Source of the DNA: Pelosinus fermentans DSM 17108 | GTDB lineage: Bacteria > Bacillota > Negativicutes > DSM-13327 | Assembly (NCBI RefSeq): GCF_000271485.2 | Contig: NZ_AKVN02000001.1 | Span: 2,443,501 to 2,507,500 of the forward strand | Direction: 5' to 3' | DNA length: 64,000 nt | In this document: in pieces, positions 5,160 to 27,949 of the stretch | How positions within the stretch are numbered: position 1 is the first letter of the stretch | Layout: the number at the start of each line of letters is the position of its first letter | Position numbers and translations under genes: made by a program | The notes under the pieces: model-generated | Told to the model about the DNA's origin: nothing | Seen by the model: only the letters and a program-made list of their open reading frames with translations | Databases searched by the model: none

Positions 5160-5375
5160 ATGTGCGAGAAGGAAATTTGTATTCCTACCGGTGTAGGAAA
5201 TAATATCAAACACACGAAAGCACTTTCGTACATCTCCGATAAACCATATATGTTAGAGCAATTTTTGAAAATAAATCATCCGATATCTTTATGCGGTAAG
5301 CCGGATGTAGTGTGGGAAACTCGTGACGGTACTTTGATCGTTGGAGATTACAAAAGTCGTGAGAATCAACGGTAA
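5160..5375 (+). pseudogene. Truncated Cas4-like nuclease fragment
   Basis: From about 5249 to 5373 the DNA is close to identical with 24128-24250 inside the Cas4-like gene at 24051. Shared protein segments are CGKPDVVWETRDG and VGDYKSRENQ, the PD-(D/E)XK active-site strands (Asp, then Asp-X-Lys). Homology stops abruptly and the frame ends in TAA, so the C-terminal iron-sulphur cysteines are missing. The 30 residues before the match show no relation to the intact copy. Most likely a displaced, non-functional piece made by duplication. Confidence 0.75.
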
Positions 5376-10626: not shown

Positions 10627-10866
10627 CTAGCGCGGCCAGCAATCTTGTTTAGGCCAGCAACTTCGTCTAGGCCTACAACCCCGTCTAGGACAACAAGATC
10701 GTCTAGGACAGCAACTATCATTAGGCCAGCAATACCAATAACAAGAGTAAATAGGGTAGCAGCCTAGGCCGAATTTCCATAAGTCTTTTGCATAAAGTTT
10801 TTTTCTCGAATTAGGATCTTCTTCCCAGTTTTCAATTTCAGGGTGATCCCATTTACGATAGTCCAT
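10627..10866 (-). CDS. CWPR hexapeptide-repeat protein A (79 aa)
   Basis: The head MDYRKWDHPEIENWEED is shared by three genes here. The tail is a tandem hexapeptide repeat, C(W/C)PR(R/Q/K)x, seen as CCPRRS, CCPRRG, CRPRRS, CWPKQD, CWPR; at DNA level the period is 18 bases. The result is an acidic head and a basic, cysteine- and tryptophan-rich tail ending exactly on CWPR. AGGAGG (10879-10884) precedes the ATG. The unit has its own SigK-like promoter and UUCG terminator. No family is recognised. Composition and promoter suggest a cross-linked spore coat or exosporium protein (inference). Confidence 0.7.
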   Translation of the reverse strand: MDYRKWDHPEIENWEEDPNSRKKLYAKDLWKFGLGCYPIYSCYWYCWPNDSCCPRRSCCPRRGCRPRRSCWPKQDCWPR

Positions 10867-12627: not shown

Positions 12628-13332
12628 ATGAGTCGTACAATTCTACATATCGATCTAAATAACTAGTACGCCAGCGTAGAATGCCTAATTCGTGATAAGC
12701 CTGTGATTGTATGCGGTGATGCTGAAGCACGTCATGGTATCATCCTCGCTAAAAATTATATTGCTAAGAACCTCGGAGTCAAGACTGGAGAAGCAAATTT
12801 GGGAGGCAAAGCAAAAGTGCCTTGGCTTAGTGTTAGTACGAGCAGATTTTCAAAAGTATTTACGGTTTTCTCGGTTAGCGCGAGAGAGTTATGCGGATTA
12901 TAGTGACAAAATTGAGCCTTATGGAATTGATGAATATTGGATTGATGTTTCCGGAACAGAGAAAATATTTGGAACTGGTCAAGATATTGCAAATCAAATC
13001 AGGCAACGCTTGCGGGATAAACTAGCCTTACTGGATCGGTTGGCGTATCCTATACTAAAATTTTTGCGAAGCTTGGTAGTGACATGAAGAAGCCAGATGC
13101 TACTACGGTTATAACGGAAGAAAATTATTGTGATAAAGTTTGGCCACTACCTATTAGTGAATTGTTGTATGTTGGTCCCTCTACTAGGCGAAAGCTTCAA
13201 AATCGCGCCATCTATACCATTGGTGACCTCGCGAACCGCGATATTAAAAGTCTACGTTTACTACTAGGCATATGGGGAGAAACGCTGCATAGCTTTGCAA
13301 ATGTTATCCATCCAATATCATATTTTAAATAA
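12628..13332 (+). pseudogene. dinB: Y-family DNA polymerase (DinB/UmuC) pseudogene
   Basis: Translation starts MSRTILHIDLNN, then TAG (12664-12666) replaces the usual Phe before YASVE. Frameshifts follow near 12795 and 13035. The pieces together give CGDAEARHGIILAKNY, IEPYGIDEYWIDVSG (catalytic Asp-Glu), GSVGVSYTKIFAKLGSDMKKPD and LPISELLYVGPSTRRKL, in correct family order. The little-finger domain is missing after LGIWGETLH. It would have copied across DNA lesions under SOS control; it cannot do so now. Confidence 0.85.
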
Positions 13333-13345
13333 GCAGGTGAAGGGT

Positions 13346-13531
13346 ATGAATAGTAAAGTCTTTGTGGAAGTTACAGCCAAACATGATATATATGGTAATG
13401 TTAGACCGATGTCAATCGAATGGGAAGATGGCAGAGTCTTTGAAGTGGATCGTCTTATCGATGTGCGTCAAGCTGCTTCTCTTAAAGGTGGAGGTGTTGG
13501 TTATGTGCAGTCAATAATTATGCAAAGATAG
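13346..13531 (+). CDS. Small protein of the dinB neighbourhood, C-terminus lost
   Basis: From ATG 13346 (GGTGAAGGGT before it): MNSKVFVEVTAKHDIYGNVRPMSIEWEDGRVFEVDRLIDVRQAASLKGGGVGY. This matches a short beta-rich protein often found just after Firmicute dinB-type genes, whose usual end (RYT-x-RI...) is replaced here by an unrelated VQSIIMQR. Probably truncated together with the polymerase. Function unknown. Confidence 0.5.
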   Translation: MNSKVFVEVTAKHDIYGNVRPMSIEWEDGRVFEVDRLIDVRQAASLKGGGVGYVQSIIMQR

Positions 13532-13649: not shown

Positions 13650-14867
13650 ATGGAAAGAGTTACATTGAGCAAGTTGATTTTGCAAGTGCGAGACACCATG
13701 AATTATCTACGTTACCCTGAGAATCATATCAAGCGAAATATGCGAATATGGGAGAAATTTCAGCAATACTCTCAAAAACACTCACAGGAGTGTTTTTCGG
13801 AAGAATTGGGAGAGCGGTACTTAAAAGAAACCTACAATTACCCGTATCCTCACACCGGCAGGATGCCTGATTCCATTCAAAGAGGAGTCCGAGCGATCCG
13901 AATGCTGGGCGACTATCAACAACATGGACACATTAGGCGTTCCAGCAGGAGACCAGCTCCTTTATATCCTACGGAGTTCAACGAAATGATGGAGCAGTAT
14001 GGGAAACGTTTACTGGAAAGTGGACTTTCAGTTGCTACTGTCAAGAATCGTAATGCCCATACCGGACACTTTTTAGCTTTTATTCACATAAAGAAGAAAT
14101 TGTCTCTATTAGAGGTAGATGCACAGTTAATTAGCAATTATGTCACCTCATTGACTGGATATGCCAATTCGACGATGGGCGGCATGCTTTCAAATTTGAG
14201 AGGTTTCTTAGAATTTCTTTTTGAAACCGGCAGAATCAAGATAAATTTGTCCTTAAATGTCCCTCCGGTGAAGCGGGACTTCTCTTATCGACTTCCTTCA
14301 ACATGGAAAGAAGAAGAAGTTAGAACTCTGCTTGCTGCCGTGGATCGTGGAAGTCCCATAGGCAAGCGGGATTACGCAATCATGTTACTGATTACTCGCC
14401 TTGGTCTGCGAAGATCTGATGCTGAAAATCTCAAGCTGAATCAAATTGACTGGGAAAAATCCTGTGTAGAGTTTGTACAAATCAAAACGAAACGCCCTCT
14501 TCTACTGCCGATGCCGGAAGATGTGGGTGAAGCAATTATTGACTATCTCCGGTATGGAAGACCTCAAACTAATGCCGAGACCCTGTTCGTTCAACATGTT
14601 CCGCCTTATTATGGCTCCATTTGTGCCGGAAACATCATGGCCAAGTATATTACCCTCTCCGGTGTCAATATCGAAAACAAGAGGCATGGGCTTCATACAT
14701 TGCGACATACTCTGGCTAGTCGTCTTTTGGAACAGCATGTCTCCGTGCACCTTATTTCGGATATTTTGGGACACGCCAACATCTACGCCACCAACGACTA
14801 TCTCCATCTGAATTTGGAGCAATTGAAACAATGCGCGATTGAAGTTGGAGAGGTATCCCCCCCATGA
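13650..14867 (+). CDS. Tyrosine recombinase A of the trio
   Basis: 405 aa. The N-terminal part holds a SAM-like DNA-binding domain (about residues 110-205). The catalytic domain shows Arg in LITRLGLRRSDAENL, then HTLRHTLASRLLEQ (His-x-x-Arg), HANIYATNDYLHL with the histidine of LGH and the nucleophile tyrosine. All catalytic residues appear present. It has GGAGG upstream, possibly masked by a hairpin. The stop overlaps the next start (ATGA at 14864). Together the trio would carry out strand exchange for the element. Confidence 0.85.
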   Translation: MERVTLSKLILQVRDTMNYLRYPENHIKRNMRIWEKFQQYSQKHSQECFSEELGERYLKETYNYPYPHTGRMPDSIQRGVRAIRMLGDYQQHGHIRRSSRRPAPLYPTEFNEMMEQYGKRLLESGLSVATVKNRNAHTGHFLAFIHIKKKLSLLEVDAQLISNYVTSLTGYANSTMGGMLSNLRGFLEFLFETGRIKINLSLNVPPVKRDFSYRLPSTWKEEEVRTLLAAVDRGSPIGKRDYAIMLLITRLGLRRSDAENLKLNQIDWEKSCVEFVQIKTKRPLLLPMPEDVGEAIIDYLRYGRPQTNAETLFVQHVPPYYGSICAGNIMAKYITLSGVNIENKRHGLHTLRHTLASRLLEQHVSVHLISDILGHANIYATNDYLHLNLEQLKQCAIEVGEVSPP

Positions 14868-15865
14868 GTAAGCAGTATTCTATGAAGCAATATACATTTT
14901 CAAGTGTTTTGGCGCCTTGGATAGAGCAATTCATCGCAGAAAAGCGAAGCCTTAAATATCAATATAACACGGAAAGCAAAATGCTGGCGCGGTTTGATAA
15001 GTATCTTGTATCAGAGCAATATGATCGGTCTAGTCTTACCAAAGAAATTATAGAAAAGTATACAGCAAAGACGCCATACGAAAGTGTGCGGAATCATAAA
15101 GCCCGATATCAGATTATCCAGCAATTTAGTAAATATTTATGTCGTTTGGGTGTGGAGACCTATGTGTCTCCACTTATTTTCAAAGGCAACAAATCCGAAA
15201 ATTTTGTCCCATATATTTTTTCAGATCGTGAAATAGCGGCCATTTTGTGGCAAGTAGATCACTACCCCTATGTTTACAAATGTCCCCATAGGCATTTGGT
15301 AGTCCCGTTGCTGCTGCGAATGTTGTAAGGATGCGGTCTAAGAGTATCGGAAGCTCTGAATTTAATGGTTGGGGATGTGGATTTCCAAAACGGTGTAATT
15401 TGTATTCGGCAGGGAAAGTTTGACAAGGACAGATTAGTACCAATGTCAGAATCTCTCCGGGTATATGTACAAGAATATATTGTTAAGGTATATTCGGCTC
15501 TAGATCCCAAAGTTCCATTTCTTCCATCTTCTCGTGGAACACCTTATAGTCCTGGAACAATTAATACTTTATTTCATAATATCTTGTTTAATGCAGGTAT
15601 CTCTCATGGTGGCAAGGGAAAAGGGCCACGAGTACACGATCTCCGGCACACCTTTGCTGTTCATTGCCTTAGAAACTGGTTTAAAAAAGGAATTGATGTG
15701 TCGGCGGCACTGCCCTACCTGTCTACTTATTTGGGACACAAAAATATGCAGGGAACGCAACAATATCTTAGGTTGACCGCAGAAATATTTCCACATATCA
15801 CGGATTTATTAGAGAAAGCGTATGGAGAAATTATACCTAGAGGTGATAAGCATGAAAACCTCTAG
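14864..15865 (+). pseudogene. Tyrosine recombinase B of the trio, with in-frame stop
   Basis: 333 codons in one frame, broken by a single TAA at 15326-15328 in LLLRML-stop-GCGLRVSEAL. Relatives have Tyr (TAT/TAC) at that point, so this is a one-base nonsense change. The stop falls just before the first catalytic arginine; the remaining half still carries RVHDLRHTFAVHCL and LGHKNMQGTQQYL. Internal restart at ATG 15365 would give a fragment without the arginine. The start overlaps recombinase A by 4 bases and the end overlaps C by 14. Confidence 0.85.
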
Positions 15866-16871
15866 TATTTCCAGTTACATTACCAATTTTCTGAGTGTTT
15901 ATCTTCCTACCCAACGCAATGTAAGCCAAAACACTATTTTTTCATACTGTGATGCCTTCCGGCTGTTTCTGACGTATTGCAGGGATCAACGTGGAATAGC
16001 TCCTGAACGTTTTTCGATTGAACAGTTTGATTCTAGCTTAGTTGGTGGATTTCTCGGCTGGTTGGAAACTGAACGAGGCTGTGGGGTTTCCACCAGAAAT
16101 CAAAGGCAGGCCGCAATCCAATCATTTTCACGGTATGTGTTAGTAGAAGCACCCCAGTATATGACGGCATGCCAAAAAATACTTCAAATCCCAATCAAAA
16201 AGAAGCCCCACCCGACAGTCCATTATTTGACAACTAATGATATGCAGCTACTACTATCGCTACCTGACACAGCAAAAAGGTCTGGGAAAAGAGATTTGGT
16301 TTTGTTAAGCGTGCTGTATGATACAGGGGCAAGGGTACAGGAAAATGCGGATTTGACTATTCGGGATATCCGGCTGGATGTGCCTGCCCATGTTCATCTG
16401 ACAGGGAAAGGTCGAAAGTCAAGAGATATTCCCCTTTTATCACAAACGGCAAATCTCATCAAGGAATATCTGGATGAATATCATCTCAATACTAGAGAAA
16501 ACCTGAGTCATCCTTTATTCAAAAACCGTCATGGAAATCAATTGACTCGCTCCGGAATCGCTTACATCCTAAAAAAGTATGCTGTAACAGTTTCAAAACA
16601 ATCTCCGCTAATGTCTCAAAATATCACTCCACATACATTACGGCACACCAAAGCTATGCATCTTTTACAGGCTGGTGTTCACCTCGTTTACATTCGTGAT
16701 ATCCTTGGACATGTAGATGTTGCAACAACGGGTATCTATGCAAAAGCCGATACAGAGATGAAACGAAAAGCACTGGAGAAAGTCGGTTCTATAATCCCTG
16801 TAGATGGACCTTCTTGGAGTAAGGATGCTGAACTAATTAATTGGCTAAAGAATTTCGGCAAGAACAAGTAA
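15852..16871 (+). CDS. Tyrosine recombinase C of the trio
   Basis: The start is ATG 15852, with AGGTGATAAGC before it, inside the end of gene B; the longer frame from 15822 lacks a site. It encodes 339 aa. SAM-like N-terminal domain (LPTQRNVSQNTIFSYCDAFR), then catalytic Arg in YDTGARVQENADL, Lys in LTGKGRKSRDIPL, HTLRHTKAMHLL, LGHVDVATTGIYA with the Tyr nucleophile. All active-site residues are seen. It closest resembles XerD-like integrases of RIT elements. Confidence 0.85.
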   Translation: MKTSSISSYITNFLSVYLPTQRNVSQNTIFSYCDAFRLFLTYCRDQRGIAPERFSIEQFDSSLVGGFLGWLETERGCGVSTRNQRQAAIQSFSRYVLVEAPQYMTACQKILQIPIKKKPHPTVHYLTTNDMQLLLSLPDTAKRSGKRDLVLLSVLYDTGARVQENADLTIRDIRLDVPAHVHLTGKGRKSRDIPLLSQTANLIKEYLDEYHLNTRENLSHPLFKNRHGNQLTRSGIAYILKKYAVTVSKQSPLMSQNITPHTLRHTKAMHLLQAGVHLVYIRDILGHVDVATTGIYAKADTEMKRKALEKVGSIIPVDGPSWSKDAELINWLKNFGKNK

Positions 16872-17107: not shown

Positions 17108-18344
17108 GATGGTGCGCCACGCATGGCGCGTAACTTGGCGGTGAAAGTCCGCTATGGGGGCTGGCAGTTGCCAACCATTAGCCAAGCGCAAGGGTGTCCA
17201 CCGCAAGGTGGAATCTAAAGGAAGCGTGATGAGCAAAATCTCGGCCCGAGGAACACAAATCGTATTAGGCATTCGAAGTGGGATGAGTCTGCCATACAAG
17301 ACAAAATCCAATAAACTGCACGGACACGGGGATGTATATGCGGCGGGTATATGGGATGAAGGTTACGTGTCTTACCGTGGGAGATCTTACGGACGCATGA
17401 AGCAAATTTGTGAAATGCGGTTGAAATAAGATTTGCCGTGAGAAGTCAGCAGATACCATATTAGTAACGCAGTCGACGGCGTTATGAAGGGTTGAACCCA
17501 AGGAGGTGTTAAGTCAATGAAGGTTACCAAAGTCGGGATAAAAGAAGGCAGAATACCTTGCTGTGGTAAGGACTGCCCGCAAAGAGATAATGCGGAACAT
17601 GAAGGGTATGCGGGAGTGCTTACTGACAAGCGGATAACTGAAAACAACAACACCGATGCCGACAGTAAAGAGAAAAGACTTTTAGAGAGAATCTTGAGCC
17701 TGGATAGCCTTAACACAGCCTATAAGCAGGTTAAGAGTAAGAAAGGCGCGCACGGAATTGATGGGATGGAAGTGGAGCATCTTCTACAATATCTCAAAGT
17801 TAACGGGGAGGAACTTACCAAGTCAATTCTGGAAGGGAAATACCATCCGAATCCGGTACGAAGAGTAGAAATACCCAAGGACAGCGGAAAAATGCGGACG
17901 TTAGGGATACCAACGGCAGTAGACAGAGTCATTCAGCAGGCAATAGCCCAGGAGCTTGAACCCATCTTCGAACCTCAATTCGCAGAGACCAGCTATGGTT
18001 TCAGGCCGAAGAGGAGTGCCCATGACGCCTTGAGAAGTGTAAGGAATACGCGAACCAAGGGTATACTTATGTCGTTGATATGGACCTTGAAAAATTTTTC
18101 GATACAGTAAACCAATCGAAGATGATTGAAATACTATCAAGGACGGTCAAAGACGGCAGAGTCGTATCGCTTATACACAAATATCTTAGGGCAGGAGCCA
18201 TGAATAGGGGACGATTTGAGGAAACGAAGCTTGGTCTTGTTCAAGGGGGTAACATTAGCCCCTTATGCAGCAACATCATGCTGAACGAACTTGACCATGA
18301 ACTGGAACGCAGAGGAATCTGGTTTGTTCGATATGCGGATGATA

Positions 18345-20212
18345 GTGCGCCACGAAGGCGTGTTCAAGTAGCGTAGCTACTGAAGGCAGCCATGCTGTAC
18401 AGATGATGGTGGTAGGTCCACCGAAATCGCCATACAGGTGGAGGTTTCAAACTACCTTAAGGTGCTGTGGCCAAAATCCATGGTATTGAGCGTTAAGGAA
18501 AAGGCAGTGATAAAACTGTCAAGTGCGTATTAAGGAGATGAATGAACAAGTGAACCACTTACGAAAATGTCGATAGCGTAGAGATTCCATCAAAACCAGG
18601 GGGTAGTCGTTAATCTGGGATAAGTCTAGGGGAAACCTGTTTACTGCCTAGACGGTGGGCGGCATAAAGGTGGCATGAACTTAATACAGGCGTCTGTACG
18701 GAACGTGGGAACCCACGGGCTGATGTTAAGGGAGTATATCAAGCGGAAGAACCGCAAGATAAGAGTACCAATGCAGTCATGGGGGCAGATTGGGTTGTAG
18801 TAGTGATGAAGTTTCTGTAATGGGAATGGAGCGAAGAACCCGAATTATTCAGTTTCAAGAATAAGTCAACTTTGAAAGGAGGAGGAACTTATGCAAGAAA
18901 CAAAGCCATACAGTATTTCCAAAAGAGCAGTAATTACTGCTTATGAAAGAGTGAAAGCAAATAAGGGAACCTATGGAGTGGATGAGCAATCTATTGAGGA
19001 TTTTGAGAGAAAGCTAAATAATAATCTCTATAAGATTTGGAATAGAATGTCGTCAGGAAGTTATTTGCCGAAACCTGTAAAGGCAGTAGCAATTCCAAAG
19101 AAGAATGGTGGAACTCGTATTTTAGGAATACCAACCGTAGAGGACAGGATAGCGCAGATGGTAGCGAAGTTATACTTTGAGCCATGCGTGGAGCCGATAT
19201 TTTACGAAGATTCCTATGGATACAGACCGAATAAATCAGCAATACAAGCAATAGAAGTAACAAGGAGAAGGTGTTGGAGAAAAGACTGGGTTTTAGAGTT
19301 TGATATAAAGGGTCTATTTGATAACATCAGACATGATTACTTAATAGAAATGGTAAAACACCAAACAAAAGAAGAATGGATTCTTCTTTATGTACCAAGG
19401 TGGTTGACAGCACCGTTTCAAATGGAGGATGGAACGATTGTTCTAAGAACTTCAGGAACGCCACAAGGTGGGGTAATCAGTCCTGTACTTGCCAATCTAT
19501 TTTTACACTATGTATTTGATGATTATATGACGAAAGAGTTTCCAACAATACCGTGGGCAAGATATGCGGATGATGGAATTGCACACTGTGCGTCTCTTAA
19601 ACAAGCGAAATATTTGCAACGCAGGCTACAGGAACGTTTTGAGCGTTTTGGATTAGAATTAAATTTGGATAAGACAAGAATTGTATATTGTAAAGATGAT
19701 GACCGAATAGGAAATCATGAATACACCTCTTTTGATTTTCTGGGATATACATTCAGACCAAGACATGCAAAGAATAAATGTGGAAAGTTCTTCACTAACT
19801 TTCTGCCAGCAATGGGAGAAAAGGCGAAGAAATCCATAAGAAAAGTAGTTAGAAAGTGGAAGTTGCAGTTGAAACCGGATAAGGACTTATTGGACATAGC
19901 AAATATGTTCAATAGCCAAATACAGGGATGGATTAATTACTACACGCATTTTTATAAATCAGAGATATATGAAGTATTAAGATATATTAATGGACGTCTT
20001 GTTTACTGGGTTCGCAAGAAATACAAGAATCGAAAATCAAGACAAAGAGCTGAACATTGGCTTGGAGAAATAGCAAAGCGTGATAGAAAACTGTTTGCAC
20101 ACTGGAAATTTGGGATACTGCCAACGGCTGGATAATGGGAGCTGTATGAGCTGAGAGGTTCACGTACAGTTCTGAGAGAGACTTAGGGGGAAGTTCCCTA
20201 GGTCTACTTGCT
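18345..20212 (+). mobile_element. Group II intron C, nested in intron B
   Basis: GTGCGCCACGAAGGCGTGTT begins at 18345. The 3' side has a domain V-like hairpin (GAGCTGTATGAGCTGAGAGGTTCACGTACAGTTCT region, about 20139-20174), a domain VI stem, and CTACTTGCT ending at 20212, similar in form to CTACTCGAT of A and B. The boundaries are set by the frame that restores the host maturase. Its protein and target differ from A and B (coding DNA, no hairpin), so it belongs to another class. Confidence 0.75.
18891..20135 (+). CDS. ltrA: Group II intron reverse transcriptase/maturase (intron C)
   Basis: 414 aa, complete; AAAGGAGGAGGAACTT precedes the ATG. RT motifs: YGVDEQSIEDFERKL, LGIPTVEDRIAQM, YGYRPNKSAIQAI, LEFDIKGLFDNIRHD, GTPQGGVISPVLANL, and the active site ARYADDGIAHC. 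The C-terminal maturase region shows IQGWINYYTHFY. It has no HNH endonuclease. It is only distantly like the A and B maturases, matching the different target choice. It would splice intron C out and so rejoin the intron B maturase. Confidence 0.9.
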   Translation: MQETKPYSISKRAVITAYERVKANKGTYGVDEQSIEDFERKLNNNLYKIWNRMSSGSYLPKPVKAVAIPKKNGGTRILGIPTVEDRIAQMVAKLYFEPCVEPIFYEDSYGYRPNKSAIQAIEVTRRRCWRKDWVLEFDIKGLFDNIRHDYLIEMVKHQTKEEWILLYVPRWLTAPFQMEDGTIVLRTSGTPQGGVISPVLANLFLHYVFDDYMTKEFPTIPWARYADDGIAHCASLKQAKYLQRRLQERFERFGLELNLDKTRIVYCKDDDRIGNHEYTSFDFLGYTFRPRHAKNKCGKFFTNFLPAMGEKAKKSIRKVVRKWKLQLKPDKDLLDIANMFNSQIQGWINYYTHFYKSEIYEVLRYINGRLVYWVRKKYKNRKSRQRAEHWLGEIAKRDRKLFAHWKFGILPTAG

Positions 20213-21169
20213 TGCTCCTCTTTGCCAAGACAAAACGGTCGGCGCAAAGAATACTTGAGAATATTGTTCCGGTCATTGAGGAGAAACTGCTTCTTAAGGT
20301 CAACACAGAGAAGACAGTCGTAGCCTATATCGGTAAGGTCAAATTTCTGGGATATGGATTCTATCCGTCAAAAGAAGGAATCAAAAACCGTGTCCACGCC
20401 AAGAGCATTAGCAAAATGAAAGCAAAAGTAAAAGAGCTCACATCAAGAAGCAACGCACTTGGATATGAAATGTTAAAGGTAAAACTGAAACAATTCATAA
20501 CGGGGTGGGTAAATTACTTCAAGCTTGCGGATATGAAGAAACTGCTTCAGACAACCGATGAATGGTTGAGAAGGAGAGTGCGCATGTATATCTGGAAACG
20601 GTGGAAGAAAATCCGTACCAGATATGCCATGCTGAAGAAACTCGGACTTAATCATAGCACTGCCTTTAAGTTTGCCTGCACAAGAAAAGGCTACTGGCGG
20701 ATAGCCAATAGCCAAATACTAAAAGTCACTGTAACCGATGCCCGCCTAAGACAGGCTGGCTATACATTTTTCTCGGATTACTTTAAAACTGTTATGGCGT
20801 AAACTTGGGAACCGCCACTTGCGGAACCGCTTGAGTGGTGGTGTGAGAGGTCGGCTACTCAAATAATGGGTAGCCTCTACTCGATAGCATATGGCCTATA
20901 CTACGAGCCACACTAAATGGGGATTGACCATTTGTCAGTTATTTCTTACTAACGCACATAAACCTTAAATTCATATAAAACATTAAATTTATTTGGGAAT
21001 CTATATCTTTTGGTTGAGGTAATTATTTCTATATGGGTTATAATGTATTTATTGTAAATAGATTCATTATAAGGAAATTATTATTAAAATGGAATGCGAT
21101 TGCGAAAGTTGAATTGTTTAAAAGTTGAAAAACACTGATACCTTGATGATTGAATAAGGAGGATATTCT

Positions 21170-22176: not shown

Positions 22177-22244
22177 CGCAATGTATATTATTGCCTAGGC
22201 AAAAATACAGAATTAAAATTTTAAAAGGTTATGGAGGTTTCATA

Positions 22245-22673
22245 ATGGGATTTAGATTAACGGTTAAAGGAAAAGATACCATTTATTTAGGTGAAAATAT
22301 AATTCGTCTTGTAAATGTGCAACTAAGTACGCCAACTGACTCAAAAGCTAAGTCAACTGATGTTGCTGCTACAATGTGGGTAACAGGAAAACTTCTTCAT
22401 ACTGAAGGACCTAGTAACAGTGACACCTTAAAACTATTTGAATGGGCGCAAGTTCCAGCACAAAGTTCAGAGGCCTATAGTGATGTAATTGTCGAGGTGG
22501 TTTCTTCTGATAAGATATTTAGAAAAGTATATTTCCCTAATGCCTTTGTAGTTGATTACAGTGAAAGATATAATGATACTGCGGGTGTTGGTGAATTTTC
22601 AATGACTTTAAGGCAGAAAGCAGATCGATTGCTTCAGGTAAAAGCTGAAGGCGGTCTAAGTTTAGGAGTATAG
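22245..22673 (+). CDS. 142-aa beta-rich protein ('membrane-associated protease 1'-like)
   Basis: ATG 22245 has ATGGAGGTTTCATA before it; the 18-residue longer frame has no site. The protein shows GFRLTVKGKDTIYLGENI, LKLFEWAQVP, and a closing VYFPNAFVVDYSERYNDTAGVGEFSMTLRQK. That final pattern is shared by clostridial proteins annotated as membrane-associated protease 1, a name without proven function, and its strand order recalls tube-forming Hcp-like folds. It lies 68 bases after the toxin-like gene and may be part of the same unit. I cannot give a function. Confidence 0.5.
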   Translation: MGFRLTVKGKDTIYLGENIIRLVNVQLSTPTDSKAKSTDVAATMWVTGKLLHTEGPSNSDTLKLFEWAQVPAQSSEAYSDVIVEVVSSDKIFRKVYFPNAFVVDYSERYNDTAGVGEFSMTLRQKADRLLQVKAEGGLSLGV

Positions 22674-22864: not shown

Positions 22865-23212
22865 ATGATCATACGTATCTTGATGGCTATTGTTATTGGC
22901 TTAATGATTTGCAGTAACACAATTTTGGTATCAGCAGCAGAGAGCTCAGCATTAATTATTCATCAAACACCTTTTGAGTATCCAAGGGAAGCTGCTAAGA
23001 ATAATTGGGAGGGGAAAGTCACACTGCTTATAAGTATAACTAATAAAGGGAATGTAAGTGAGGTCATAATCCAGAAGAGTTCCGGTTATGAGATTCTTGA
23101 TGATGCGGCAAAGGATAATGTGAAAAAGTGGAGGTTTATTCCTGCGCGAAATCAGGATAATCAGTCAATCGCCTCTGAAATGCCTTTAGATGTATCGTTT
23201 TATTTAAAATAG
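22865..23212 (+). CDS. TonB C-terminal domain protein
   Basis: 115 aa. A signal peptide (IRILMAIVIGLMICSNTILVSAAES) is followed directly by a TonB C-terminal domain: FEYPREAAKNNWEGKVTLLISITNKGNVSEV, SSGYEILDDAAKDNVKKWRFIPA. The proline-rich bridge and N-terminal anchor of true TonB are absent, so it is a short, exported periplasmic relative and not a full energy transducer. Its presence supports an outer membrane. An imperfect GCCCTA/TAGGGC hairpin (23235-23258) follows without a T run. Confidence 0.8.
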   Translation: MIIRILMAIVIGLMICSNTILVSAAESSALIIHQTPFEYPREAAKNNWEGKVTLLISITNKGNVSEVIIQKSSGYEILDDAAKDNVKKWRFIPARNQDNQSIASEMPLDVSFYLK

Positions 23213-23586: not shown

Positions 23587-23661
23587 AAAGGATCTTCTTT
23601 TTTACATAACTCCCCATAATGCTATATAATAGGAACATACTATTTTCTCGGAGGTCCCAAA

Positions 23662-24048
23662 TTGCGTCAAACCAGTGCTACAGAACTCGCCAAAATGGGA
23701 AAATGCGAACGCCAAGTCTACCTTGACTACCATCATGGCGAAGATACATCACTTACAGCAACATTCATCAAACGAGGCAACCAAGAGCACGAACAATTTA
23801 ATCGCCAGCTTTCTGGTAGAGATAATCGCTGTTTTATTGCAACATCAGTCTTTGGTATTGATGCCATAGAAACGAATATCCTGCGTCAATTTAGGGATAT
23901 GTATCTAATGCCTTACAGCCCTGGGCGAATGATTACTTCATTATATTATAATATATCACCACATATAGTTATCGTAATTGAAAGGTACCCTGTATTGAGG
24001 ATTCCAATCCGTGCAGTATTACGTTGGTTTATTAGATCCTGGAGGTAG
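23662..24048 (+). CDS. Cas4-like N-terminal segment fused to a CFI-box domain
   Basis: TTG start with GGAGGT 6 bases before it. Residues 1-50 (SATELAKMGKCERQVYLDYHHGE..., FIKRGNQEHEQFN) match the opening of Cas4/RecB-type nucleases, including the first iron-sulphur cysteine. Residues 52-125 are a CFI-box domain: CFIATSVFGIDAIETNILRQF, RDMYLMPYSPGR, LYYNISP, then basic helices. CFI-box domains normally close secreted or membrane proteins. The gene ends 2 bases before the start of the nuclease core gene (24051), so the two make one unit holding all Cas4 parts plus an added membrane-type domain. Confidence 0.65.
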   Translation: MRQTSATELAKMGKCERQVYLDYHHGEDTSLTATFIKRGNQEHEQFNRQLSGRDNRCFIATSVFGIDAIETNILRQFRDMYLMPYSPGRMITSLYYNISPHIVIVIERYPVLRIPIRAVLRWFIRSWR

Positions 24049-24050
24049 AC

Positions 24051-24509
24051 ATGTCATTCTTTATATTAGTTGTAGTTATTATTCTTTATTGGTGGTTGCG
24101 CTCAAGACGAAAACCCAAGCTATCACCATATATGTTAGAGCGATTCTTAAAAATAGCTGATCCGGTGCCTTTATGCGGTAAGCCGGATGTAGTGTGGGAA
24201 ACTCGTGACGGTTCTTTGATAGTTGGAGATTACAAAAGTCGTGAGAATCAACAAGTATATGAATCTGAGATTATTCAGCTATCTGTATATAAACTATTGG
24301 TTGAAAGAACACAAAATAGGTCAGTTGCTGATTATGGTTTTATTCATTTCAAGAATCGAAGTATGAAAAAGGTATCTTTAATGAAGGAAAAAGAAATTAT
24401 TACTTTGTATTATCGGTATTGGAATGTGATAGGAGGTGAGGTGGTCGCTTGTGTTGCTAATAATAAAAACTATTGTAGATATTGTTCGCACAAGCATGAG
24501 TGTAACTAA
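24051..24509 (+). CDS. Cas4-like PD-(D/E)XK nuclease, membrane-anchored core
   Basis: 152 aa. GGAGG ends 3 bases before the preceding stop and serves this ATG. Residues 2-20 are a membrane helix. The active site has CGKPDVVWETRDG (Asp) and LIVGDYKSRENQ (Asp-X-Lys), then YESEIIQLSVYKLL (the QxxxY motif of Cas4/RecB). The end CRYCSHKHEC gives three of the four iron-sulphur cysteines; the fourth would come from the upstream gene. Cas4 relatives are 5'-3' exonucleases; no CRISPR is seen here, so it is a solitary Cas4-like enzyme, possibly for DNA uptake or defence. Confidence 0.75.
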   Translation: MSFFILVVVIILYWWLRSRRKPKLSPYMLERFLKIADPVPLCGKPDVVWETRDGSLIVGDYKSRENQQVYESEIIQLSVYKLLVERTQNRSVADYGFIHFKNRSMKKVSLMKEKEIITLYYRYWNVIGGEVVACVANNKNYCRYCSHKHECN

Positions 24510-27193: not shown

Positions 27194-27475
27194 CTAACGT
27201 GGACAGCAACCTTGTCGAGGCCAACAAGCTTTCCAAGGCCAACAATTCCCTCTAGGCCAGCAGGATTGTCTGGGCCAACAGAAGTATCTAGGCCAACAAC
27301 CATTATATTGATGATGATGATCATTACAATGATCATTATACCAGTAGTCTTGTCTAGGCCAGCATGAACAAGATTTACGATTCGAACTAGTATTATATCC
27401 TAGTTCGAATCCATTTCTATCGTTTAAGATTTCTCTCCACTCTTCAATTTCAGGGTCTTCCCAATTATAGTCCAT
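27194..27475 (-). CDS. CWPR hexapeptide-repeat protein C (93 aa)
   Basis: Longest of the three. Head MDYNWEDPEIEEWREILNDR; middle with a first repeat (CWPRQD), then a His/Asn/Tyr-rich insert (YWYNDHCNDHHHQYNG) that could bind metal; tail CWPRYF, CWPRQS, CWPRGN, CWPWKA, CWPRQG, CCPR. The 18-base repeats differ in number between A, B and C, as expected if they expand and shrink by slippage or recombination. AGGAGGTGATAC precedes the ATG. Own promoter and terminator. No known family. Confidence 0.7.
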   Translation of the reverse strand: MDYNWEDPEIEEWREILNDRNGFELGYNTSSNRKSCSCWPRQDYWYNDHCNDHHHQYNGCWPRYFCWPRQSCWPRGNCWPWKACWPRQGCCPR

Positions 27476-27690: not shown

Positions 27691-27810
27691 TTAACAACCA
27701 GAGGAACAATCGTTATTATCGAAGCAGAAAAATAATAAGATGATAATTATAATAATAATGCAGCCAGAACCGCCGAAGCCATTGCGACCGCCTCCAAAAC
27801 CTAAACCCAT
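27691..27810 (-). CDS. 39-aa Gly-rich/poly-Ile/Cys-tailed peptide, copy 2
   Basis: ATG 27810 with AAAGGAGG before it. Identical to copy 1 (415-531) over the first 17 residues (MGLGFGGGRNGFGGSGC); seven Ile instead of six; tail CFDNNDCSSGC. The longer frame to 27933 crosses the promoter and is not used. Promoter, ribosome-binding site and terminator are conserved with copy 1, so the whole unit was duplicated. Likely a late-sporulation membrane or coat peptide. Confidence 0.7.
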   Translation of the reverse strand: MGLGFGGGRNGFGGSGCIIIIIIILLFFCFDNNDCSSGC

Positions 27811-27839
27811 AAGTATTCCTCCTTTATCGTCAATTAATG

Positions 27840-27866
27840 TATTGTATGATAGCGAAACCGAGAGGT
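27840..27866 (-). promoter_or_regulatory. SigK-like promoter of mini-gene copy 2
   Basis: AC (27866-27865), 16 bases, CATACAATA (27848-27840): a full match to AC-N16/17-CATAnnnTA. The spacer differs from copy 1 while the boxes are kept. Confidence 0.55.
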
Positions 27867-27949
27867 GAGTATTATACAAAATAAATATTGATGAGAGCCT
27901 GCAATTGCAAACTTTTTTTATGCAAATTTTCATTAAATACTGTATTATC

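What the first reader, a model, noticed from the sequence alone, without database searches (positions are those of the whole stretch)
23662..24509. Cas4-like nuclease split over two genes with a CFI-box inserted
Gene 1 carries the Cas4-type N-terminus with its first cysteine and then a CFI-box domain. Gene 2, 2 bases later, carries a membrane helix, the PD-(D/E)XK site and the last three cysteines (CRYC...C). Together they hold a full iron-sulphur nuclease, but with a membrane-type domain in the break and no CRISPR nearby. This could be a two-subunit membrane-bound exonuclease, perhaps linked to DNA uptake by the pilus system or to defence.
Basis: partly seen in the sequence, partly recalled or inferred. 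Interest (0 to 1): 0.65.

Follow-up and report, generated by a model that had tools for sequence, protein, structure and literature searches.

The report
Membrane Cas4-like nuclease in two genes
Two neighbouring small genes each carry half of one DNA-cutting, iron-sulphur enzyme of the Cas4 type with a membrane anchor on each half; the same gene pair, with its key residues, occurs in other bacteria and on many conjugative plasmids, including the IncC multidrug-resistance plasmids, where both halves are annotated only as hypothetical proteins.

Summary
Gene 2 (24051-24509) carries a membrane helix, the PD-(D/E)XK core (D46, D60-x-K62, Q76) and the last three cysteines. It is not a frameshift: the pair recurs in 6 families of the class and on plasmids of 13 proteobacterial genera. 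In all 20 divergent pairs compared, gene 1 keeps C/G/H and gene 2 keeps D, D/E and K; 18 keep the full CxxC...C. Distances of the two genes correlate (r 0.86). IncC plasmids carry a separated version: gene 1 between mobI and repA, with a C-terminal membrane helix instead of a CFI-box, and gene 2 about 5 kb away. The CFI-box is thus one of several exchangeable tails, probably membrane anchors. I conclude that the pair forms one two-chain, membrane-anchored Cas4/AddB-like nuclease. Its use (DNA processing at the membrane during plasmid transfer, or attack on rival DNA) is inferred, not shown. The pilus link is not supported. Co-folding could not be done.

The parts
23601..23630 (+). sigma-70-like promoter candidate, TTTACA-18-TATAAT, directly upstream of gene 1
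   Evidence: 11 of 12 consensus positions; a consensus match only
23650..23655 (+). Shine-Dalgarno GGAGGT ahead of the TTG start of gene 1
   Evidence: sequence; same GGAGGT in the genus relatives
23662..24048 (+). gene 1: Cas4-N module + CFI-box domain + amphipathic C-terminal helix (128 aa)
23662..23817 (+). gene 1 residues 1-52, Cas4-type N-terminal module (SATELAKMGKCERQ...RGNQEHEQF)
   Evidence: profile comparison with Cas4
23704..23706 (+). Cys15 of gene 1, aligned with the first Fe-S cysteine of Cas4
   Evidence: invariant in 20 of 20 pairs
23788..23790 (+). His43 of gene 1, aligned with the metal-ligand His of the Cas4/RecB nuclease motif I
   Evidence: invariant in 20 of 20 pairs
23830..24033 (+). 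CFI-box domain (residues 57-124)
   Evidence: NCBIfam NF041770 E 3e-21
23992..24045 (+). C-terminal amphipathic helix of gene 1 (VLRIPIRAVLRWFIRSWR); a similar helix ends the relatives without a CFI-box
   Evidence: hydrophobic moment 0.66
24051..24509 (+). gene 2: membrane helix + Cas4-like PD-(D/E)XK core + last three cysteines (152 aa)
24051..24101 (+). predicted N-terminal membrane helix of gene 2 (residues 1-17)
   Evidence: hydropathy; kept in nearly all relatives
24186..24236 (+). catalytic residues D46 and D60-Y-K62 of gene 2
   Evidence: D, D/E and K conserved in 20 of 20 pairs
24474..24503 (+). Cys142, Cys145, Cys151 of gene 2 (C-x2-C-x5-C)
   Evidence: 18 of 20 pairs; the two IncC-type pairs have C-x-C...H
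5241..5375 (+). relic of a second gene 2 copy (residues 25-69, 80% identical, ends at a stop)

Best explanation
The two genes encode the two chains of one membrane-anchored nuclease of the Cas4/AddB/Dna2 (RecB-like PD-(D/E)XK, Fe-S) kind. Gene 1 supplies the N-terminal helices with the first cluster cysteine (Cys15) and the metal-binding histidine (His43). Gene 2 supplies the other catalytic residues (Asp46, Asp60, Lys62, Gln76) and the last three cysteines. Neither chain alone has a complete cluster site or a complete metal site, so both should form only when the chains meet at the membrane, each held there by its own anchor (gene 2: N-terminal membrane helix; gene 1: CFI-box plus amphipathic helix, or amphipathic helix alone, or a membrane helix). 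Shown here: sequence homology of both halves to complementary parts of Cas4, conservation of all ligands, adjacency or co-occurrence, correlated divergence, purifying selection. Inferred: physical assembly, cluster, nuclease activity, membrane location. More tentatively, the enzyme trims or degrades DNA at the inner membrane of cells carrying conjugative elements, either processing transferred DNA or attacking competing DNA; in Pelosinus it is an accessory chromosomal copy, since a sister strain has damaged gene 1 copies.
For: Gene 2 lacks the N-terminal third of every Cas4 model and gene 1 supplies it: TIGR00372 positions 2-50 (weak, E 0.07) against 66-179 for the Microbulbifer pair, Dna2 positions 56-103 for gene 1 of L012 (E 0.005), profile comparison E 3.8e-4 with Cys and His in register. 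20 of 20 divergent pairs keep C/G/H in gene 1 and D, D/E, K in gene 2. Adjacent, gene 1 first, in 6 families of the class and 10 of 13 plasmid genera read (one gene between in the other 3). Class-wide, gene 1 and gene 2 occur in almost the same genomes. Distance matrices correlate, r 0.86, 0 of 5000 permutations as high. In IncC plasmids the partner was found about 5 kb away, in 1082 records against 1132 with gene 2-type matches. Gene 2 model resembles Cas4, EXO5, AddAB, MGME1, Dna2.
Against: No complex could be folded: the fused read-through model was poor (pLDDT 51) and the gene 2 model moderate (60), so contact of the four cysteines is untested. No experiment exists. The cluster site is altered in IncC-type gene 2 (C-x-C...H instead of CxxC...C). 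Sporomusa acidovorans keeps gene 2 without the Cas4-N part of gene 1, and Pelosinus JBW45 has damaged gene 1 copies beside an intact gene 2. No single-chain fusion was found. The transfer or defence role rests on gene context only.
Confidence: 0.78

Rival explanations
1. Gene 2 is a complete small membrane nuclease by itself, and gene 1 is a separate membrane partner (regulator, inhibitor or antitoxin) whose resemblance to the Cas4 N-terminus is a relic without catalytic role.
For: Some genomes keep gene 2 without an intact gene 1 (S. acidovorans, Pelosinus JBW45). Many PD-(D/E)XK enzymes work without the motif-I histidine (general knowledge).
Against: Cys15 and His43 are invariant in 20 of 20 pairs and the Cas4-N part is the most constrained part of gene 1; both are exactly the ligands missing from gene 2.
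Confidence: 0.12
2. The pair is a conjugation or plasmid-establishment factor that processes plasmid DNA at the inner membrane (a choice of role for the two-chain nuclease).
For: In IncC-type plasmids gene 1 follows mobI and precedes repA, close to the oriT mapped upstream of mobI (PMC5587640); most plasmid carriers are conjugative or mobilizable, and MobI, TraG, S49 peptidase, DsbA, SSB or RecT lie nearby in many.
Against: The Negativicutes copies are chromosomal with no transfer genes recognised beside them; no deletion phenotype of these genes was found in the papers read.
Confidence: 0.38
3. The membrane nuclease belongs to a defence or plasmid-competition system that attacks incoming phage or plasmid DNA at the membrane, with the split serving as a safety catch (the other choice of role).
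For: Cas4-like nucleases often sit in defence loci (PMC5704561); patchy distribution and decay (12 of 380 genomes in the class) fit an accessory system; gene 2 has matches to PADLOC Cas4 and, weakly, DruK models.
Against: No conserved defence neighbour was seen in the Negativicutes or plasmid loci; in IncC gene 1 is a backbone gene next to mobI and oriT.
Confidence: 0.3
4. The nuclease serves DNA uptake by the type IV pilus system of the window.
For: A pilus-type operon lies at about 33.5-45 kb of the window.
Against: It is about 9 kb away behind unrelated genes, and no pilus genes were recognised beside the pair in the other families.
Confidence: 0.03

Closest known systems
Cas4 (TIGR00372 / PF01930), e.g. 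type I-C Cas4 8d3l
   Same: Complementary halves match Cas4; four cysteines C-Xn-C-X2-C-X5-C; GxxxH, D, (D/E)xK in the same order; gene 2 model matches 8d3l_I first by Foldseek.
   Different: Two polypeptides, each with a membrane anchor; no CRISPR locus nearby; below the TIGR00372 cut-off (39 against 65 bits); the genome has a separate CRISPR cas4.
MGE-Cas4 and pfam12705 Cas4-like proteins (Hudaiberdiev et al. 2017, PMC5704561)
   Same: Cas4-like nucleases outside CRISPR loci; the paper mentions a clade linked to conjugative plasmids of Burkholderiales, which may include the gene 2 family.
   Different: The main text searched has no mention of a split, of membrane helices or of a second subunit; it states that all Cas4 proteins have four cysteines, which gene 2 does not.
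CFI-box-CTERM domain proteins (NCBIfam NF041770)
   Same: The gene 1 tail is a full match.
   Different: Here it follows a nuclease half and is exchangeable with an amphipathic or membrane helix; elsewhere it ends unrelated proteins. No paper on the domain was found.
AddB, Dna2 and EXO5 Fe-S nuclease domains
   Same: Same cluster layout and fold (general knowledge); the best structural matches of gene 2 include EXO5, AddAB and Dna2.
   Different: Those are single chains or helicase fusions; here there is no helicase, and the domain is split and membrane-linked.

Membership tests
Cas4-like Fe-S PD-(D/E)XK nuclease (superfamily level) | catalytic His, Asp, (Asp/Glu)-x-Lys | tested here: met
   met only by gene 1 + gene 2 together; 20 of 20 pairs
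Cas4-like Fe-S PD-(D/E)XK nuclease (superfamily level) | four cluster cysteines, one N-terminal and three C-terminal | tested here: met
   Cys15 in gene 1 and Cys142/145/151 in gene 2; 18 of 20 pairs have all four, IncC-type has C-x-C...H
Cas4-like Fe-S PD-(D/E)XK nuclease (superfamily level) | RecB/Cas4-type fold | tested here: inconclusive
   gene 2 model pLDDT 60; top matches are Cas4, EXO5, AddAB and Dna2, Z about 5-6
Cas4-like Fe-S PD-(D/E)XK nuclease (superfamily level) | nuclease activity and bound Fe-S cluster | not testable with these tools
   needs biochemistry
CRISPR Cas4 (TIGR00372 equivalog) | score above the curated cut-off of 65 bits | tested here: not met
   39.4 bits for gene 2, 40.6 for the concatenation
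CRISPR Cas4 (TIGR00372 equivalog) | encoded with cas1/cas2 or a CRISPR array | tested here: not met
   no cas genes recognised around any pair from ORF lists or annotations; the genome's cas4 lies elsewhere
CRISPR Cas4 (TIGR00372 equivalog) | single polypeptide | tested here: not met
   two ORFs in every relative seen
CFI-box-CTERM domain (NF041770), gene 1 tail | score above the curated cut-off | tested here: met
   74.9 against 40 bits
type IV pilus / DNA uptake system | conserved neighbourhood with pilus or competence genes | tested here: not met
   pilus operon seen only in the window, about 9 kb away; not recognised in the other families' loci

The most novel reading that the evidence does not exclude
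A widespread, undescribed two-chain membrane-anchored Fe-S nuclease whose cluster and active site are each completed only when two separately anchored proteins meet, carried as a backbone module by conjugative plasmids from Burkholderiales plasmids to IncC, where it acts on DNA at the mating or entry site; the CFI-box is one of several interchangeable membrane anchors.
Probability: 0.4. Interest if true: 0.8.

Novelty: new variant of a known kind. Interest (0 to 1): 0.64.

Why it matters
It gives a testable identity to two 'hypothetical' proteins found on about a thousand sequenced plasmids, mostly IncC multidrug-resistance plasmids: two halves of one membrane nuclease. It would be, to my knowledge, the first Cas4-type enzyme whose Fe-S cluster and metal site are shared between two chains. 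It also gives a first functional clue to the CFI-box, a common domain without known function: its place is taken by a membrane helix in IncC and by an amphipathic helix in other relatives.

Tried and rejected
Frameshift or pseudogene as the cause of the split: rejected, since the split is conserved across two phyla, with dN/dS mostly below 0.25. Phage origin: no gene 2 match in phages or viral contigs; the single gene 1 match in phages covers only the CFI-box. A viral contig hit (L097) was an unrelated protein ending in a CFI-box. Relatives elsewhere in the phylum: 398 genomes gave only weak matches to single-gene Cas4-sized or longer proteins. First belief that IncC lacks gene 1: wrong; the profile found it beyond the first stretch read. 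One freak shuffle score (133.6) in the profile control is unexplained. A search centred on Pseudomonadota genomes was not possible. Terminator scan found none. Papers on a split Cas4 or the CFI-box: none in the held library.

Full report
WHAT IS THERE. Gene 1 is 23662-24048 (TTG start behind GGAGGT, 128 aa) and gene 2 is 24051-24509 (ATG, 152 aa), same strand, 2 bases apart. A good sigma-70-like site lies at 23601-23630. Gene 1 contains a full CFI-box-CTERM domain at residues 57-124 (E 3e-21). Gene 2 matches PDDEXK_1 (E 9e-10), Cas_Cas4 (3e-5) and Cas4 TIGR00372 (5e-10, 39 bits against a cut-off of 65), always from about a third of the way into the profile to its end. The missing N-terminal third of a Cas4 protein is what gene 1 begins with.

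IS THE SPLIT REAL? A search of 200 relatives found gene 2 in 13 genomes, one of them only a weak match inside a long protein. Of the 12 with a full-length gene 2, five are of the window's genus (Pelosinus; names) and seven belong to six other families of the class. Eleven have gene 1 (intact or, in JBW45, frameshifted) just upstream; the pair is thus in six families. Over 380 genomes of the class, full-length gene 2 occurs in the same 12 and the gene 1 N-terminal family in nearly the same set. Exceptions are decayed: Sporomusa acidovorans has gene 2 with only the end of gene 1 recognisable; Pelosinus JBW45 has a frameshifted gene 1 beside an intact gene 2 and a second, broken pair. In the window itself a relic of a second gene 2 lies at 5241-5375. 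Between related genomes dN/dS is mostly 0.08-0.25 for both genes, and about 0.08-0.14 for the first 52 residues of gene 1 in the pairs with enough divergence, so both are under purifying selection.

WIDER DISTRIBUTION. A translated search of plasmids found gene 2 relatives on 1132 records, 1029 of them conjugative. A search with the Acidovorax gene 1 found 73 records. In the plasmid loci read, gene 1 with Cas4-N and CFI-box is followed directly by gene 2 in Acidovorax, Denitratisoma, Burkholderia, Rhodanobacter, Methylophaga, Microbulbifer, Piscinibacter, Vibrio, Aeromonas and Marinobacter, and with one gene between in Dyella, Thioalkalivibrio and Xanthomonas. In IncC plasmids gene 1 seemed absent at first, but it lies between mobI and repA (mobI 323-862, gene 1 867-1154, repA from 1139; gene 2 at 6249-6770 in L142). 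A homologue of that gene 1 is on 1082 plasmid records with nearly the same breakdown by host genus as gene 2. A Pseudomonas aeruginosa plasmid has the two genes divergent. The IncC gene 1 scores 22.5 bits against the gene 1 profile, above the best of 5000 shuffles of itself (12.8), and IncC gene 2 scores E 3.5e-37. Neither IncC protein matches any Pfam family at E 0.01.

THE HALVES FIT TOGETHER. A profile of the gene 1 N-terminal parts (17 sequences) aligned with a Cas4 profile built from 30 Cas4 proteins of the class gives E 3.8e-4, with the conserved cysteine on the first Cas4 cysteine and G-x3-H on G-x3-H; gene 2 gives E 4e-12 over the remaining length. Column shuffles of gene 1: 199 of 200 at or below 16 against 28.1; one shuffle gave 133.6, which I cannot explain and take for an artefact; the CFI part scored 10.5. 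The plasmid-rich subset alone gave E 6e-4, the Negativicutes alone 0.016. In 20 divergent pairs, gene 1 has C, G and H in all 20; gene 2 has D, D/E and K in all 20, and CxxC...C in 18; the two IncC-type pairs have C-x-C and a His instead. Distances of gene 1 and gene 2 correlate with r 0.86 over the 20 pairs (0 of 5000 permutations reach it) and 0.77 among plasmids alone; shared ancestry of neighbours contributes to this, but the separated IncC-type and P. aeruginosa pairs also group together in gene 2 and mostly in gene 1.

ANCHORS. Gene 2 has an N-terminal hydrophobic helix in nearly all pairs examined; the P. aeruginosa copy lacks it. Gene 1 ends in one of three ways: CFI-box plus amphipathic helix, amphipathic helix alone (71-79 aa proteins in several Negativicutes, for example WLIRFLRWLLRLFIR), or a membrane helix (IncC type). 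The exchange suggests that the CFI-box is a membrane-association module here; this is inference.

STRUCTURE. The only pair that could be submitted as one chain (L023, stop codon read as Q) gave a poor model (pLDDT 51). Gene 2 without its helix gave a moderate model (60, core 70-85). Its first Foldseek matches are Cas4 (8d3l, probability 0.99, E 0.014), Argonaute-associated Cas4-family ACE1 and AdnAB; the second aligner ranks EXO5, AddAB, Cas4, MGME1 and Dna2 at Z about 5-6. The E-values and Z are modest, but the relatives named are consistently of one superfamily. Whether the four cysteines meet is not tested.

MECHANISM. Shown: homology of complementary parts, conservation of all ligands, linkage, selection. 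Inferred: the two proteins meet at the membrane, complete the Fe-S cluster and the metal site, and cut DNA. What DNA, and when, is open. Most plasmid carriers are conjugative or mobilizable, and in IncC gene 1 follows mobI, whose upstream region holds oriT (PMC5587640); pVCR94 gene vcrx002 appears to be this gene 1 by position, and it is named once in the held library (PMC3915882). I give a transfer/establishment role 0.38 and a defence or competition role 0.30; these are roles for the same two-chain nuclease, not alternatives to it. A pilus link is rejected: neighbours in the other families look like unrelated housekeeping genes, judged from translations and a Pfam check of ten of them.

NOVELTY. 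Cas4-like nucleases outside CRISPR, including plasmid ones, are known (PMC5704561). A two-chain form with membrane anchors was not found in the searches made, though the library holds only open-licence papers. I rate it a new variant of a known kind.

Noticed in passing
window 17197-20802: One group II intron appears to sit inside the reverse-transcriptase gene of another: RT parts at 17517-18376 and 20212-20802 are separated, just after a YADD motif, by a second intron with its own RT (18891-20135); Rfam intron hits at 17197, 18408 and 20137.
   Followed up: partly
window 13650-16871: Three consecutive, partly overlapping tyrosine-recombinase-type genes, the middle one broken in two (14864-15328, 15365-15865); looks like a recombinase-in-trio element.
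   Followed up: partly
window 27194-27475 and 10627-10866: Two related short ORFs made of repeated CWPRQ-like units (for example CWPRQSCWPRGNCWPWKACWPRQ), each near a short Gly-rich/poly-Ile ORF (27691-27933; 415-642 has the same type).
   Followed up: no
window 22865-23212: A 115-aa protein that is little more than a signal-like helix and a TonB C-terminal domain (E 2e-20), with no TonB N-terminal part.
   Followed up: no
window 22191-22673: Weak sub-threshold match to T6SS Hcp/TssD (E 0.0016, 18.8 bits against cut-off 25.8).
   Followed up: no
L107 10262-11539; L020 2505-3317; window 12707-13531: Y-family (UmuC/DinB-type) polymerase gene directly downstream of the pair in one genome; sequences that look like broken relatives lie upstream of it in Pelosinus. 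May be chance.
   Followed up: partly
L142 6249-6770 and L078 4830-5378: IncC-type gene 2 has C-x-C-x4-H at its end instead of C-x2-C-x5-C, suggesting a changed metal or cluster site.
   Followed up: partly
L004/L020 and L016/L024 (Pelosinus fermentans JBW45): Two copies of the pair in one genome, gene 1 damaged in both and gene 2 intact in one only.
   Followed up: yes
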